Positions 5,300-20,671 of a DNA stretch of 64,000 bases are shown in pieces. The position numbers were made by a program, and so were the translations under genes. The notes beneath the pieces are model-generated. The model worked only from the letters and a program-made list of their open reading frames with translations. It had not been told where the DNA came from and searched no databases. This DNA comes from Chrysoporthe austroafricana (Eukaryota; Ascomycota; Sordariomycetes; Diaporthales; Cryphonectriaceae), in the NCBI GenBank assembly GCA_001051155.2, contig JYIP02000010.1:992001-1056000 (forward strand), read 5' to 3'. The first letter of the stretch is position 1. Every line of letters begins with the position of its first letter.

Positions 5300-8200
5300 T
5301 CATTCTGAAGCTGCAACCAGCTTGCTCTTCTCGGCAATCTTGGCCGCAAACGCCGTCATCGGCATGGCGGCCAGGATCTCTAACAGGGCGATGTTCGCCT
5401 TGAGTTCCCTTGTGATCCAGTTCCTCACCTCGAGCGCCACGAGCGAGTCGACGCCATAGCGGTACATAGGTCGGCTCGGGTCGACCTCGGAGGCCGGGAT
5501 CTGCAGCATGTCGGCGATCTTGCGCACCAGGGCGTCCAGGATGACCTCGACGGCCTGCTCGGGGCTGCCGGCCTCCGCGAGGCGCGACGCGAGCGACGCG
5601 GTGACGCCCTGCTCGCCCGCCGATGCCTGGGCGGCGACGCTCGCTACGGCCAGCGGCCCCAGGCGCGGGTCGGCAAAGTAGTACGGCAGGGCTAGGCCGT
5701 GGGCAGCGATGAGGTCGGCAGAGCCCAGGCCAGTGCACACCTGGGCGGGGCATGCGTCGCCGTCGCGCTGGCGGACGATCAGGCTCTTGACGAGGGCGCG
5801 GAAGGCCGGCTCACGGATGCCGATGACGTCCTCCCACTGCGACAGGTTGTTTCCGACGCCGGCCGTCTCCGCGATGGCACCGACGTCGCGCATAATGCCC
5901 AGGTTGATGGACACCGCCTTAAGCCCCCGGGCGCGCCGGTGGTGCGCCAGTGCGTCCTGATACGCATTCCCGGCGGCGTACTGCGCCTGGCCGGCGTTGC
6001 CGCATACACCCGACACAGACGAGCAGGCGATGAAGAAGTCGAGCGGCCGCGTTTGGTCAAAGAAGCGGTGCAGGTTCCATGTGCCCTGCACCTTGGGTCG
6101 CAGAGGCTCTGTCCAGTCGGCGTACGACATGTTCTCGAGCACACTATCGCGCAGCACCATAGCCATCTATTTTATCCATTCCGAGTTAGTATTTTTGCTC
6201 TTATGAGGTGTCTGAGGCGATGTGTAGGGACCTGCCCCGGGAAGTGCACAACCATAAAACCCCTTCAGGAGGGTTTGGCCCACAGGACAGCTCCTAATAT
6301 ATCTCCTAATACGCCTCACAAGCAGAAATTACAGGTGGGGGAAGACTGACCTGCACGACGCCCCGGATGGGCGGCAGCTCGCGCGAGCACTGCTCTATGG
6401 CAGCGAGGAATGACGTCTCGTTGGCAACGTCGGCGCGATATGCTTTAACCTGGGCACCGCGCGCCGCGAGCTCCTCAACAGTAGAGCGAGCCTCAGCACT
6501 GGCAGCGCCCGACCGAGACAGGAAGGCGATATTCTGCGCACCGCACGCGACGAGCTCACGCGCGAGACTGCGGCCTAGGCCTCCCAGGCCGCCGACGATG
6601 AGGTAGGTAGCGCTGGAATCGAGCTTGACGGTGTCCTTGGCGCGACGGTACACCTTAGCCTGGGCGCCCTCGGGGTACGACAGAGCCAGCTTGCCACGGT
6701 GCTTGCCACGCTGCATGGTGCGGAAGGCCGTCTCGATCTCGCCGACGGGGTACGCCGTTAGGGGGCTCGGCGCGTAGAGCACCCCCCTATGCACGAGGTC
6801 GAACGTGTCCTGTAGGATCTGGCCGGCGATATCCTTGTGGTCGTCGAAAAAGTTGGTTAGGTTAATGAAGGCGAAGGTGGTGCACTTAATAAAGGGCCGC
6901 ATATCAAGGCGCATATTGTTAGTAATATCACGGAGGCCGATCTCGACAAAGGTACCGAACATGGCGACACACTCCCACGATGCACGCAGAAGCTCGCCCG
7001 ACAGCCTACACATCTAGGAGTTAGCGATCGACAGAAACAGTAATGGGGAGGAGTTTCGAGACATGCGTCACGAGTAGCAAGATAGAAGTATCTGAGAAGC
7101 ATGAAGCCTAGAGCTCAAAGTGCAGACAGAACGGGAATGAATCTACTCCCGCGGGTGACTTACGAGTTGAGCACACAGTCGACGCCGCGCCCGACCGTGA
7201 TACGCTTGACGGCCTTAACGAAGCTGGCGTCGCGCGAGTTGAAGATATGCGCCGCGGGCACGCCGTACTTATCCATGACCAGCGCGCGCTTGTCCTCGCT
7301 GCCAACCGTTACATACGCCACAAGGCCCAGGTGCTTAGCCAGCTGCAGCGCCGCTTGCCCGACTCCGCCGGCTGCAGCGTGGATCAGGACTGACTGGCCC
7401 CGGCGCAGCTTAGCGACGTTGACGAGGGCGTGGTACGCCGTTGCGTGCACCGTTGGCAGCACGGCTGCCTCCTCAAAGGACATGGAGTCGGGGATCTTCA
7501 CGGCCAGGCGGTGGTCGCTTCGAAGCCTCGTTGCGTGCATTCCCTCTCCAGACACGACGACGCGGTCCCCAAGCTGGAACCTCTCGGCGGCCTTGCTGCC
7601 CATGGCGACGACAGTGCCGCTCGCTTCGTGGCCGATGAGCGACACCTCGACCAGACCCATGGACGCCATGACGTCTTTAAAGCTGCATACGGTGTTAGCC
7701 TTTCTGTCTCGTGGGTGGAATCCGTCGGCGAGCAGTAAACCTACTTAACACCCGTTGCCTTGACATCGATCTCGATTTCCATCTCCGCAAGCGGGGCATC
7801 AAAGCGCTCGTCGTGGACGAAAGCCAGCGAGTCCAGCAGACCCGGCTTCCCGATCGTGAGCCTCAGGGCCTCGGGCGTATCGTTGTCTTTCAGAGGCTGG
7901 ACGCGAACGGAATCCTCGAGGCAGTGGCGCAGCGCCTCGTTACCCGCGACGCTGTCGAAGAAGCGGCTGACCTGGAGCAGGCCGCCGTGCTCGCGGAACT
8001 CGTCATCCTTGGTGCTCGACGTCGCAAGGCGGGTGACGAGAGACGGCCCGTGTCGCAGCGCCGTAGCTGGGCTGCTGAGGAGGTGCAGGACCTGGAACTT
8101 GAGGCTCGCGTTCTCGTTTCTTGCCGTCCTCGAAAGGCCGTCGACAATAGCCATGGACGGACTGTGGCCGCCGGTGACCCAGAGAAGGCGCTCGGAACTC

Positions 8201-19900: not shown

Positions 19901-20671
19901 CCCTTCAAGTCCAAGCAGGCCGTCTACGGCATCGACTCGCCCTATTTCCGCTGCCCGTCCCGAATGACCAGCAAGGTCGGCATCGAGGACGTGGCCAGGC
20001 TGGTGGTGGACGCGCTGATTAAGGCGCAGGGCACGGGGCCCTTCCTGATCGGCGGCTACTCGGCCGGCTGCCTCGTCGCCTTCGAGGTCTCGCGCCAGCT
20101 GGCCGCCGCCGGGCGCACGGTCGACGGCCTCCTGCTGGTCGACATGTGCTGCCCGCGGTCGCGGCGGAGGGACCGGCACACGCTGCTCGCCGAGGACGAG
20201 TTCAGCTACGCCGTCTTCGAGGCTGCCGTCAACAGGGACGGCCTATGGAGCTCGCTCGGCTCCAGCCGCGACCACTTCCGCGCATTCCTCGTCGCCATGA
20301 ACGAGTACACCCCGGCGCCGATGACAGCCGCGGAGCGGCCCGGTAAGACGGCTGTCATCTGGGCTGAGCGGGGGCTGGTCAACCGCGTGTCAGACGACCC
20401 TGCGCTCATGCAGAAGCTGGCGGGCTCGGCGGTCCCTACCAGGCCGTACCCGGGCTTCATGGAGGATCCCAACCTGGGCACGTTTGCGTGCCTTGTACCA
20501 GACAAGGGCGGGATTGAGAACCTAGGCCCCAACGGCTGGGACAAGTACACCGGTGGAGACGTCATGGCCCTGTCTGTGGCCGGAGACCACTTTGAGCTGC
20601 CCATGCCCGGACACGTCCATCTTCTCCAGGCGCAGATGGAGAAGGCTCTTGCGTATTTTTCCTCGAGTTGA
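13989..20671 (+). CDS. Non-reducing polyketide synthase SAT-KS-AT-PT-ACP-TE (2116 aa)
   Basis: Five exons (13989-14296, 14386-14683, 14771-16408, 16487-16696, 16775-20671) join in phase to 2116 codons. The start at 13989 precedes the SAT motif ILLFGD. Domains: SAT with GISGG near residue 129 (Ser in place of the usual Cys); KS with DSACAG near 570 and EMHGTGT; AT with GHSLGEYAALHAAG near 1020; PT with His in LSDHGFLG near 1336 and Asp in EFSPDFRG near 1497; one ACP with GVDSIMAIE near 1716; an acidic, Pro/Ser-rich linker; TE with GGYSAG near 1914 and GDHFELPMPGH at the end. There is no methyltransferase or reductase domain. Architecture and length match Rdc1/Hpm3/Zea1-type synthases that extend a starter from an HR-PKS, fold it into a resorcylate-type ring and release it as a lactone. 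The intron at 16697-16774 appears to use a GC donor. Confidence 0.93.

What the first reader, a model, noticed from the sequence alone, without database searches (positions are those of the whole stretch)
5300..20671. Intact collaborating HR-PKS/NR-PKS pair for a benzenediol lactone of unknown structure
Both genes were assembled exon by exon and close perfectly in phase (2384 and 2116 aa), with all catalytic motifs present. Domain order, absence of methylation and reductive release domains, head-to-head layout and TE-type release are those of resorcylic or dihydroxyphenylacetic acid lactone synthases. The tailoring set visible here (one FAD monooxygenase, possibly an SDR and a cupin) lacks the halogenase and P450 of radicicol and the O-methyltransferase and GST of hypothemycin. 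The product may therefore differ from the known lactones.
Basis: partly seen in the sequence, partly recalled or inferred. Interest (0 to 1): 0.8.

Follow-up and report, generated by a model that had tools for sequence, protein, structure and literature searches.

The report
Fungal C3–C8 polyketide synthase pair
Two intact fungal enzymes encoded back to back probably build a dihydroxyphenylacetic acid compound related to curvularin or the cytosporones; it is a new member of a known family, and its exact product is not known.

Summary
A highly reducing PKS (minus strand, 8 exons, 13242-5300, 2384 aa) and a non-reducing PKS (plus strand, 5 exons, 13989-20671, 2116 aa) are intact and divergently transcribed across 746 bp. 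Annotated pairs in Cytospora, two Diaporthe species and Lasiosphaeria are 84-89% (HR) and 81-87% (NR) identical.

The interpretation can be narrowed. Whole-protein and product-template (PT) trees put the NR-PKS in the C3-C8 (dihydroxyphenylacetic) clade with A. terreus CURS2, away from resorcylic synthases. At four PT positions the window and the other 18 counted rows of its own and the CURS2 clade have S/F/Y/W; the 12 counted resorcylic-side rows have Y/F/L at three (12 of 12) and P at the fourth (10 of 12). The HR-PKS falls with HR-PKSs that mostly pair with such enzymes, not with HPM8, RDC5 or the Fusarium enzyme.

So this is probably not a resorcylic acid lactone pair. Release may give a macrolactone or an open-chain cytosporone. 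I lean to cytosporone-type: the nearest relatives' genera make cytosporones, and the published cytosporone subclade is sister to curvularin synthases. That placement is indirect; the reference cytosporone synthase was not recognisable in my listings.

The parts
5300..13242 (-). HR-PKS, 8 exons (13242-13119, 13009-12278, 12197-11983, 11913-9061, 8934-7745, 7682-7164, 7005-6351, 6166-5300), 2384 aa, KS-AT-DH-(degenerate methyltransferase-like region, by eye)-ER-KR-ACP
   Evidence: (6 of 8 exons scanned)
13243..13988 (.). shared upstream region between the two divergent PKS genes, 746 bp
   Evidence: coordinates; one CGG-N14-CCG match at 13475, no test of significance
13989..20671 (+). NR-PKS, 5 exons (13989-14296, 14386-14683, 14771-16408, 16487-16696, 16775-20671), 2116 aa, SAT-KS-AT-PT-ACP-TE
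14462..14464 (+). SAT active-site position Ser129 (GISGG)
18188..19240 (+). product-template domain region used for the PT tree (aa 1290-1640)
18356..18358 (+). PT conserved His1346
18383..18385 (+). PT Ser1355 (= CURS2 S1317; Pro in 10 of 12 resorcylic-side rows, 1 Ala, 1 gap)
18800..18802 (+). PT Phe1494 (= CURS2 F1455; Tyr in 12 of 12 resorcylic-side rows)
19163..19165 (+). PT Tyr1615 (= CURS2 Y1576; Phe in 12 of 12 resorcylic-side rows)
19187..19189 (+). PT Trp1623 (= CURS2 W1584; Leu in 12 of 12 resorcylic-side rows)
20060..20062 (+). TE nucleophile Ser1914 (GGYSAGC)
22076..23664 (+). FAD monooxygenase, 7-exon model, 416 aa; candidate tailoring enzyme. Two of its three best solved relatives are named decarboxylative vanillate 1-hydroxylase and 4-hydroxybenzoate decarboxylase; salicylate monooxygenases follow
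   Evidence: splice sites chosen by hand, one weak donor (GTTCAT)
25180..26979 (+). MFS transporter, 599 aa, single exon; candidate exporter
29423..30796 (-). Zn(2)-Cys(6) regulator, 457 aa; candidate cluster regulator

Best explanation
An intact, divergently transcribed pair of collaborating iterative PKSs of the C3-C8 type. The HR-PKS builds a reduced acyl chain (inferred tetraketide, C8). The SAT of the NR-PKS takes it over (inferred). The NR-PKS adds about four malonyl units (inferred from the family). Its PT domain closes the ring by C3-C8 aldol condensation to a 2-acyl-3,5-dihydroxyphenylacetyl thioester (strongly supported by residues and tree). The TE then releases it, most likely as a cytosporone-type acid or ester rather than a macrolactone (leaning only). 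The neighbouring FAD monooxygenase, transporter and Zn-cluster regulator are plausible but untested partners. Shown: gene structure, domains, catalytic motifs, C3-C8 clade. Inferred: chain length, release mode, product, tailoring. Confidence in C3-C8 closure alone is about 0.9; the figure below is for the whole statement with cytosporone-type release.
For: Intact models matching annotated relatives across junctions. NR whole-protein tree: window in a starred 10-row clade, which with Apiospora is sister to the CURS2 clade; the Hypomyces, LasS2, Fusarium and RADS2-annotated rows lie outside. PT-only tree with bootstrap: 29-row C3-C8 clade at 100/100 on a branch of 0.7. PT positions S/F/Y/W in 9 of 9 CURS2-clade rows and 10 of 10 window-clade rows (window included); Y, F, L in 12 of 12 and P in 10 of 12 resorcylic-side rows. 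HR tree: starred 15-row clade, namely the window, 5 close relatives and 9 others; for 7 of those 9 an NR-PKS is listed with the same species and contig length (not for A. filifer and P. egyptiacum); HPM8, RDC5 and Fusarium lie outside. PMC9114375 (passages) reports that C2-C7 and C3-C8 PT domains form two monophyletic subclades. For the cytosporone leaning: species of Cytospora, Leucostoma and Diaporthe make cytosporones. PMC12721105 (passages) places a cytosporone HR subclade, with a Diaporthe toxica amplicon 80.9% identical to DHC3 in its '2k-3k' block, as sister to DAL synthases. In codons 667-1000, over 142-residue stretches, the window and its Cytospora and Diaporthe relatives reach 76.8-78.9% to 8 DAL-clade HR-PKSs, against 64.1% for Corynespora P0156 and 62.7% for D. 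batatas P0185.
Against: No metabolite or expression data. The reference cytosporone HR-PKS (C. cassiicola BS50DRAFT_676138) was not recognisable in my listing. The C3-C8 NR-PKS of C. cassiicola that I did find (P0107) sits in a different C3-C8 clade, and the HR-PKS on a contig of the same length (P0156, BS50DRAFT_676305) groups with RDC5, so the cytosporone clade could be that one. The two trees disagree on the nearest C3-C8 neighbour: CURS2 clade plus window in the whole-protein tree (100), Corynespora group plus window in the PT-only tree (98/94). In the strict 2-3 kb block no window-type HR-PKS reaches the published 80.9% (best 78.9%, and Lasiosphaeria only 70.4%); 79.6-85.2% is reached only in a wider stretch, and there P0156 reaches 75.4%, or 81.0% elsewhere in the protein. 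DHC3 itself was not in my set; proxies were used. PMC12721105 put its Valsa and Leucostoma amplicons in basal uncharacterised clades, not in the cytosporone subclade.
Confidence: 0.47

Rival explanations
1. Same C3-C8 pair, but the TE closes a macrolactone of the curvularin or aldaulactone kind (a true dihydroxyphenylacetic acid lactone).
For: The window clade plus Apiospora is the sister of the CURS2 clade in the whole-protein tree; HR-PKS in one starred clade with HR-PKSs of which most pair with CURS2-clade enzymes; TE triad positions present.
Against: Closest named relatives are in genera with cytosporone producers. In the PT-only tree the window clade joins the Corynespora/D. batatas group rather than CURS2 (98/94). 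TE release mode cannot be read from sequence.
Confidence: 0.37
2. A resorcylic acid lactone pair (zearalenone, radicicol or hypothemycin type).
For: HPM8 is 61% identical to the HR-PKS over its length; same domain order.
Against: PT tree, PT signature residues, NR tree and HR tree all place it outside the resorcylic rows.
Confidence: 0.03
3. The pair is a mismatched or silent system yielding only shunt acyl-dihydroxyphenylacetates or nothing.
For: No transcript data; a natural mismatched pair is described for Rhytidhysteron (PMC12721105 passages).
Against: HR and NR trees are congruent here at the clade level; annotated pairs of high identity are kept in four named species.
Confidence: 0.12

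Closest known systems
Uncharacterised pairs in Cytospora schulzeri (VMCG_08954/08955), Diaporthe amygdali, D. ilicicola (diail_11219/11220) and Lasiosphaeria miniovina
   Same: HR 88.5, 87.0, 84.8, 83.7% and NR 87.3, 86.0, 85.4, 80.7% identical over the aligned residues; consecutive locus numbers in two of the four, HR and NR on contigs of equal listed length in all four
   Different: no product known to me for any of them
10,11-dehydrocurvularin synthase CURS1/CURS2 (Aspergillus terreus)
   Same: C3-C8 PT clade and identical residues at the four PT positions; SAT Ser; NR-PKS 64% identical over 2126 alignment columns
   Different: separate clade; macrolactone release not shown here; CURS1 was not recognisable in my HR listing
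Cytosporone synthases (Li et al. 2024, known to me only through PMC12721105)
   Same: the published HR subclade is the sister of DAL synthases, a place that fits the window HR-PKS; producing genera include those with the nearest named relatives
   Different: reference sequences not available here, so membership untested
Resorcylic acid lactone synthases (Hpm8/Hpm3, Rdc5, LasS2, the zearalenone pair)
   Same: domain order and collaborating HR/NR logic
   Different: PT residues Y/F/L (and mostly P) instead of F/Y/W (and S); separate clades for both proteins

Membership tests
C3-C8 (dihydroxyphenylacetic) collaborating PKS pairs | NR-PKS SAT-KS-AT-PT-ACP-TE without C-methyltransferase or reductive release | tested here: met
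   on the segments holding exons 3 and 5; exons 1, 2 and 4 not scanned by HMM
C3-C8 (dihydroxyphenylacetic) collaborating PKS pairs | PT domain in the CURS2-type C3-C8 clade | tested here: met
   100/100 support
C3-C8 (dihydroxyphenylacetic) collaborating PKS pairs | PT residues as in CURS2 (F1455, Y1576, W1584; residue names recalled from Xu et al. 2013, not read) | tested here: met
C3-C8 (dihydroxyphenylacetic) collaborating PKS pairs | adjacent HR-PKS of the matching clade | tested here: met
Dihydroxyphenylacetic acid macrolactone synthases | TE forms a macrolactone | not testable with these tools
   release mode needs expression
Cytosporone synthases | HR-PKS in the clade of C. cassiicola BS50DRAFT_676138 | tested here: inconclusive
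   reference not recognisable; indirect identity test fits better than for P0156 or P0185 but falls short of the published 80.9% in the strict block
Cytosporone synthases | product is an acyl dihydroxyphenylacetic acid or ester | not testable with these tools
   no metabolite data
Resorcylic acid lactone synthases | PT domain of the C2-C7 type | tested here: not met
Resorcylic acid lactone synthases | HR-PKS with HPM8, RDC5 or the Fusarium enzyme | tested here: not met

The most novel reading that the evidence does not exclude
The pair and the adjacent FAD monooxygenase, two of whose three best solved relatives are decarboxylating aromatic hydroxylases by name, form a cytosporone cluster in which the monooxygenase adds the third ring hydroxyl or trims the acid side chain, giving trihydroxy cytosporones (D/E type; those structures are recalled, not read).
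Probability: 0.15. Interest if true: 0.5.

Novelty: new member of a known kind. Interest (0 to 1): 0.34.

Why it matters
It gives a complete HR/NR sequence pair of the rarer C3-C8 ring closure, in a clade for which I found no characterised enzyme and whose other members include Cytospora and Diaporthe. It makes testable which C3-C8 clade makes cytosporones and which makes macrolactones, and whether the TE or the starter chain decides release. It does not change how the family is understood to work.

Tried and rejected
Resorcylic type: rejected by PT residues and by the NR and HR trees. Azaphilone or orsellinate type: not tested in a tree; disfavoured because the scanned segments show no methyltransferase or reductive release domain and the named nearest relatives are benzenediol lactone-type synthases. 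Reading the clade with Corynespora P0107 as the cytosporone clade: not decided; its HR-PKS groups with RDC5, unlike the published HR placement. Bidirectional promoter motif search: nothing useful. Papers on cytosporone biosynthesis and on chain-length programming: not held; further searches gave no other account of the cytosporone synthases that I could use. A paper on the Alternaria alternantherae synthase: two papers that mention the species, not opened. Synteny in other fungi could not be examined: no fungal genome collection is offered.

Selection notes. One search flagged 15 columns in the PT region (one a gap column). Of the 14 others I report three: one because PMC5386248 mentions a Pro near the catalytic dyad, two because I recalled them from Xu et al. 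2013. The Trp lay just past the end of the scanned region and was looked up because I recalled it. The resorcylic-side set of 12 rows was chosen by me from the tree; other rows outside the C3-C8 clade (P0265, P0276, P0281, P0283, P0290, P0258, P0249, P0298, P0300, P0301, P0306, P0311) were not counted, nor was Apiospora P0118. The Cladosporium and Penicillium antarcticum rows and the C6 paralogue were shown apart: they have Y/F/L, with Ala, Ala and Pro at the fourth. In the further C3-C8 clade of 10 rows (Corynespora, D. batatas and others) the residues are F in 10, and S, Y, W in 9 with one gap each; the conserved His is Asn in one of these and a gap in one CURS2-clade row. The NR and HR trees used 55 and 44 proteins that I picked by name, length and spread out of the 120-row listings, plus the window and (NR) the C6 row; both are quick trees without bootstrap. 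Hpm3 (P0261), the Fusarium zearalenone rows (P0296, P0142) and Lasiodiplodia P0140 are taken as resorcylic synthases from memory of species and locus names. P0138 and P0174 carry UniProt names, P0262 the name LasS2; P0288's RADS2 label is an annotation. The identity test used a wide stretch that I chose; the strict block was added on re-check, came out weaker, and moved the cytosporone figure from 0.50 to 0.47.
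Full report
What is there. The window lies in a 48.15 Mb, 22-contig genome, presumably of a fungus of the Diaporthales (inference from nearest relatives only). Between 5300 and 20671 two PKS genes stand back to back. Introns are GT-AG except the last NR intron (GC-AG). The start codons are 746 bp apart. Against annotated relatives the protein runs through the junctions without gaps in 34 of 35 (HR, 5 relatives) and 22 of 24 (NR, 6 relatives) cases, the best available substitute for transcripts.

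Domains. Pfam on 6 of the 8 HR exons gives KS, AT, DH, ER, KR and ACP; on the segments holding NR exons 3 and 5 it gives SAT (its C-terminal end), KS, AT, ACP and thioesterase, and NCBIfam gives PT (TIGR04532 at 245.8 bits). Catalytic motifs line up with relatives in both. No methyltransferase family is reported for the HR exons scanned; the stretch between DH and ER reads, by eye, as a degenerate relic. The SAT has Ser in GxSxG, as do CURS2 and the Hypomyces row; LasS2 has Cys.

Relatives. The NR search returned 804 proteins at E <= 1e-50 among 7992 candidates, of which 120 were listed. The HR search returned 3783 at E <= 1e-100 among 7994, 120 listed. The closest named species are Cytospora schulzeri, Diaporthe amygdali, D. 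ilicicola and Lasiosphaeria miniovina for the HR-PKS, and these four with Kalmusia for the NR-PKS. In all four the HR and NR proteins are on contigs of the same listed length; in C. schulzeri and D. ilicicola the locus numbers are consecutive. A. terreus CURS2 is 64% identical to the NR-PKS. UniProt HPM8 and RDC5 are 61% and 55% identical to the HR-PKS.

Which ring closure. In a 57-row whole-protein tree the NR-PKS is in a starred clade of 10 (window, Cytospora, two Diaporthe, Lasiosphaeria, Kalmusia, Clohesyomyces, Alternaria alternantherae, Bathelium, one environmental row). With Apiospora that clade is sister to the CURS2 clade; the resorcylic references are outside. A PT-only tree of 44 rows with bootstrap gives the C3-C8 clade (29 rows) 100/100 on a branch of 0.7. 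Four PT positions separate the sides: window S1355, F1494, Y1615, W1623 (CURS2 S1317, F1455, Y1576, W1584) against P, Y, F, L. Counts are 9 of 9 CURS2-clade and 10 of 10 window-clade rows (window included) against 12 of 12 resorcylic-side rows for Y, F, L and 10 of 12 for P. PMC5386248 (passages) says that CURS2 is the C3-C8 exception in a group of mostly C2-C7 enzymes, and that a residue near the catalytic dyad is Pro in all C2-C7 groups; its numbering (PksA T1354) seems to match S1355, but I did not align PksA. PMC11026467 (passages) says that three residues switch the cyclisation mode, without naming them; that these are F1455, Y1576 and W1584 is my recollection of Xu et al. 2013. PMC9114375 (passages) found C2-C7 and C3-C8 PT domains in two monophyletic subclades.

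The partner. In a 45-row HR tree the window HR-PKS is in a starred 15-row clade: the window, 5 close relatives and 9 others (Lentithecium, Onygenales, Pyrenophora, Apiospora, three Aspergillus, two Penicillium). For 7 of the 9 the NR listing holds an NR-PKS of the same species and contig length; for A. filifer the contig lengths differ, and for P. egyptiacum none is listed. HPM8, the Fusarium enzyme and RDC5 are elsewhere. HR and NR histories agree at this level, unlike the Corynespora/Hypoxylon/Curvularia group, whose NR-PKS is C3-C8 but whose HR-PKS groups with RDC5, the pattern described for Rhytidhysteron in PMC12721105 (passages).

Lactone or cytosporone. The sequence does not say how the TE lets go. 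Indirect facts lean to cytosporones. Species of Cytospora, Leucostoma and Diaporthe/Phomopsis make cytosporones (PMC10096137 passages, which calls cytosporones A-E octaketides; PMC3366674 passages; PMC12029568 passages; PMC10745014 listing only). PMC12721105 (passages) names a cytosporone HR subclade that is sister to the curvularin synthases and holds a Diaporthe toxica amplicon 80.9% identical to DHC3. Over codons 667-1000 the window, Cytospora and Diaporthe HR-PKSs reach 76.8-78.9% to 8 DAL-clade HR-PKSs over 142 residues, Lasiosphaeria 70.4%, Corynespora P0156 64.1% and D. batatas P0185 62.7%. The window type is thus the nearest of those at hand but below the published figure. Against the leaning: the reference protein from C. 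cassiicola was not recognisable in my listing, the only C3-C8 NR-PKS of that species that I saw (P0107) is in another clade, the PT-only and whole-protein trees differ on which C3-C8 clade is the nearest (98/94 for the Corynespora group, 100 for the CURS2 clade), and Valsa and Leucostoma amplicons in that paper fell into basal clades. I give about 0.47 to cytosporone-type release, 0.37 to a macrolactone and about 0.9 to C3-C8 ring closure as such.

Surroundings. Downstream lie a FAD monooxygenase (22076-23664, 416 aa by a hand-built 7-exon model), an MFS transporter (25180-26979) and a Zn(2)-Cys(6) regulator (29423-30796, minus). The monooxygenase's best solved relatives are decarboxylative vanillate 1-hydroxylase (8x38), an unnamed FAD-binding protein (8r2t), a 4-hydroxybenzoate decarboxylase (8gsm) and salicylate monooxygenases. 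It could be a tailoring hydroxylase or an unrelated catabolic gene. A cupin (34.1-34.6 kb) and an SDR (35.5-36.1 kb) lie beyond the regulator, followed by GH106, tannase and alcohol dehydrogenase pieces, so I would end the likely cluster near 31 kb. Pfam gave no halogenase, methyltransferase or GST in the flank segments scanned (30, two more and the spliced monooxygenase); shorter exons and other segments were not scanned. A P450 piece at 55.5-56.0 kb belongs to a different stretch.

Verdict. A real, intact and conserved system of a known kind, in a clade for which I found no characterised enzyme. Literature searches were made, in an open-licence library that lacks the key JACS papers, so 'uncharacterised' means only not found there.

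Noticed in passing
own genome G000:C6, about 176-192 kb (L015, L016): A second divergent HR/NR PKS pair of the benzenediol lactone type; its NR-PKS is 45% identical to the window's, has the Y/F/L PT residues of the C2-C7 side and is 81% identical to a Discula destructiva protein. It sits in a deep clade, perhaps one of the uncharacterised Diaporthales 'BDL-like' clades of PMC12721105.
   Followed up: partly
window 51775-57063: KS, KS C-terminal and acyltransferase pieces (+, 52.6-55.2 kb) beside an alcohol dehydrogenase-like piece (-), a P450 piece and a Tc5-type transposase DNA-binding domain. May be a decayed PKS locus next to a transposon; not tested, described only.
   Followed up: no
NR listing against HR listing: NR-PKS relatives from Kalmusia, Clohesyomyces, Alternaria alternantherae, Bathelium and Bacidia have no HR partner recognisable by species or contig length among the 120 listed HR proteins, while the four Sordariomycete relatives do. 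[quoted passage not shown]
   Followed up: no
P0107 clade (Corynespora, Hypoxylon, Curvularia kusanoi, Cladophialophora, Agyrium): C3-C8 NR-PKSs whose species' HR-PKSs group in the clade of RDC5 rather than with other C3-C8 HR-PKSs, suggesting an old partner exchange.
   Followed up: partly
window 16697-16774: GC-AG intron in the NR-PKS; the annotated D. amygdali model (P0009) has a gap just after this junction, as if its predictor missed the non-standard donor.
   Followed up: no
window 61625-63179: An alpha/beta hydrolase piece (+) and a second FAD_binding_3 monooxygenase piece (-) near the right edge of the window.
   Followed up: no
L017 (C2:982001-992000) 6168-8197: Open frames that read like a type-B carboxylesterase upstream of the window, by eye only, not scanned.
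   Followed up: no
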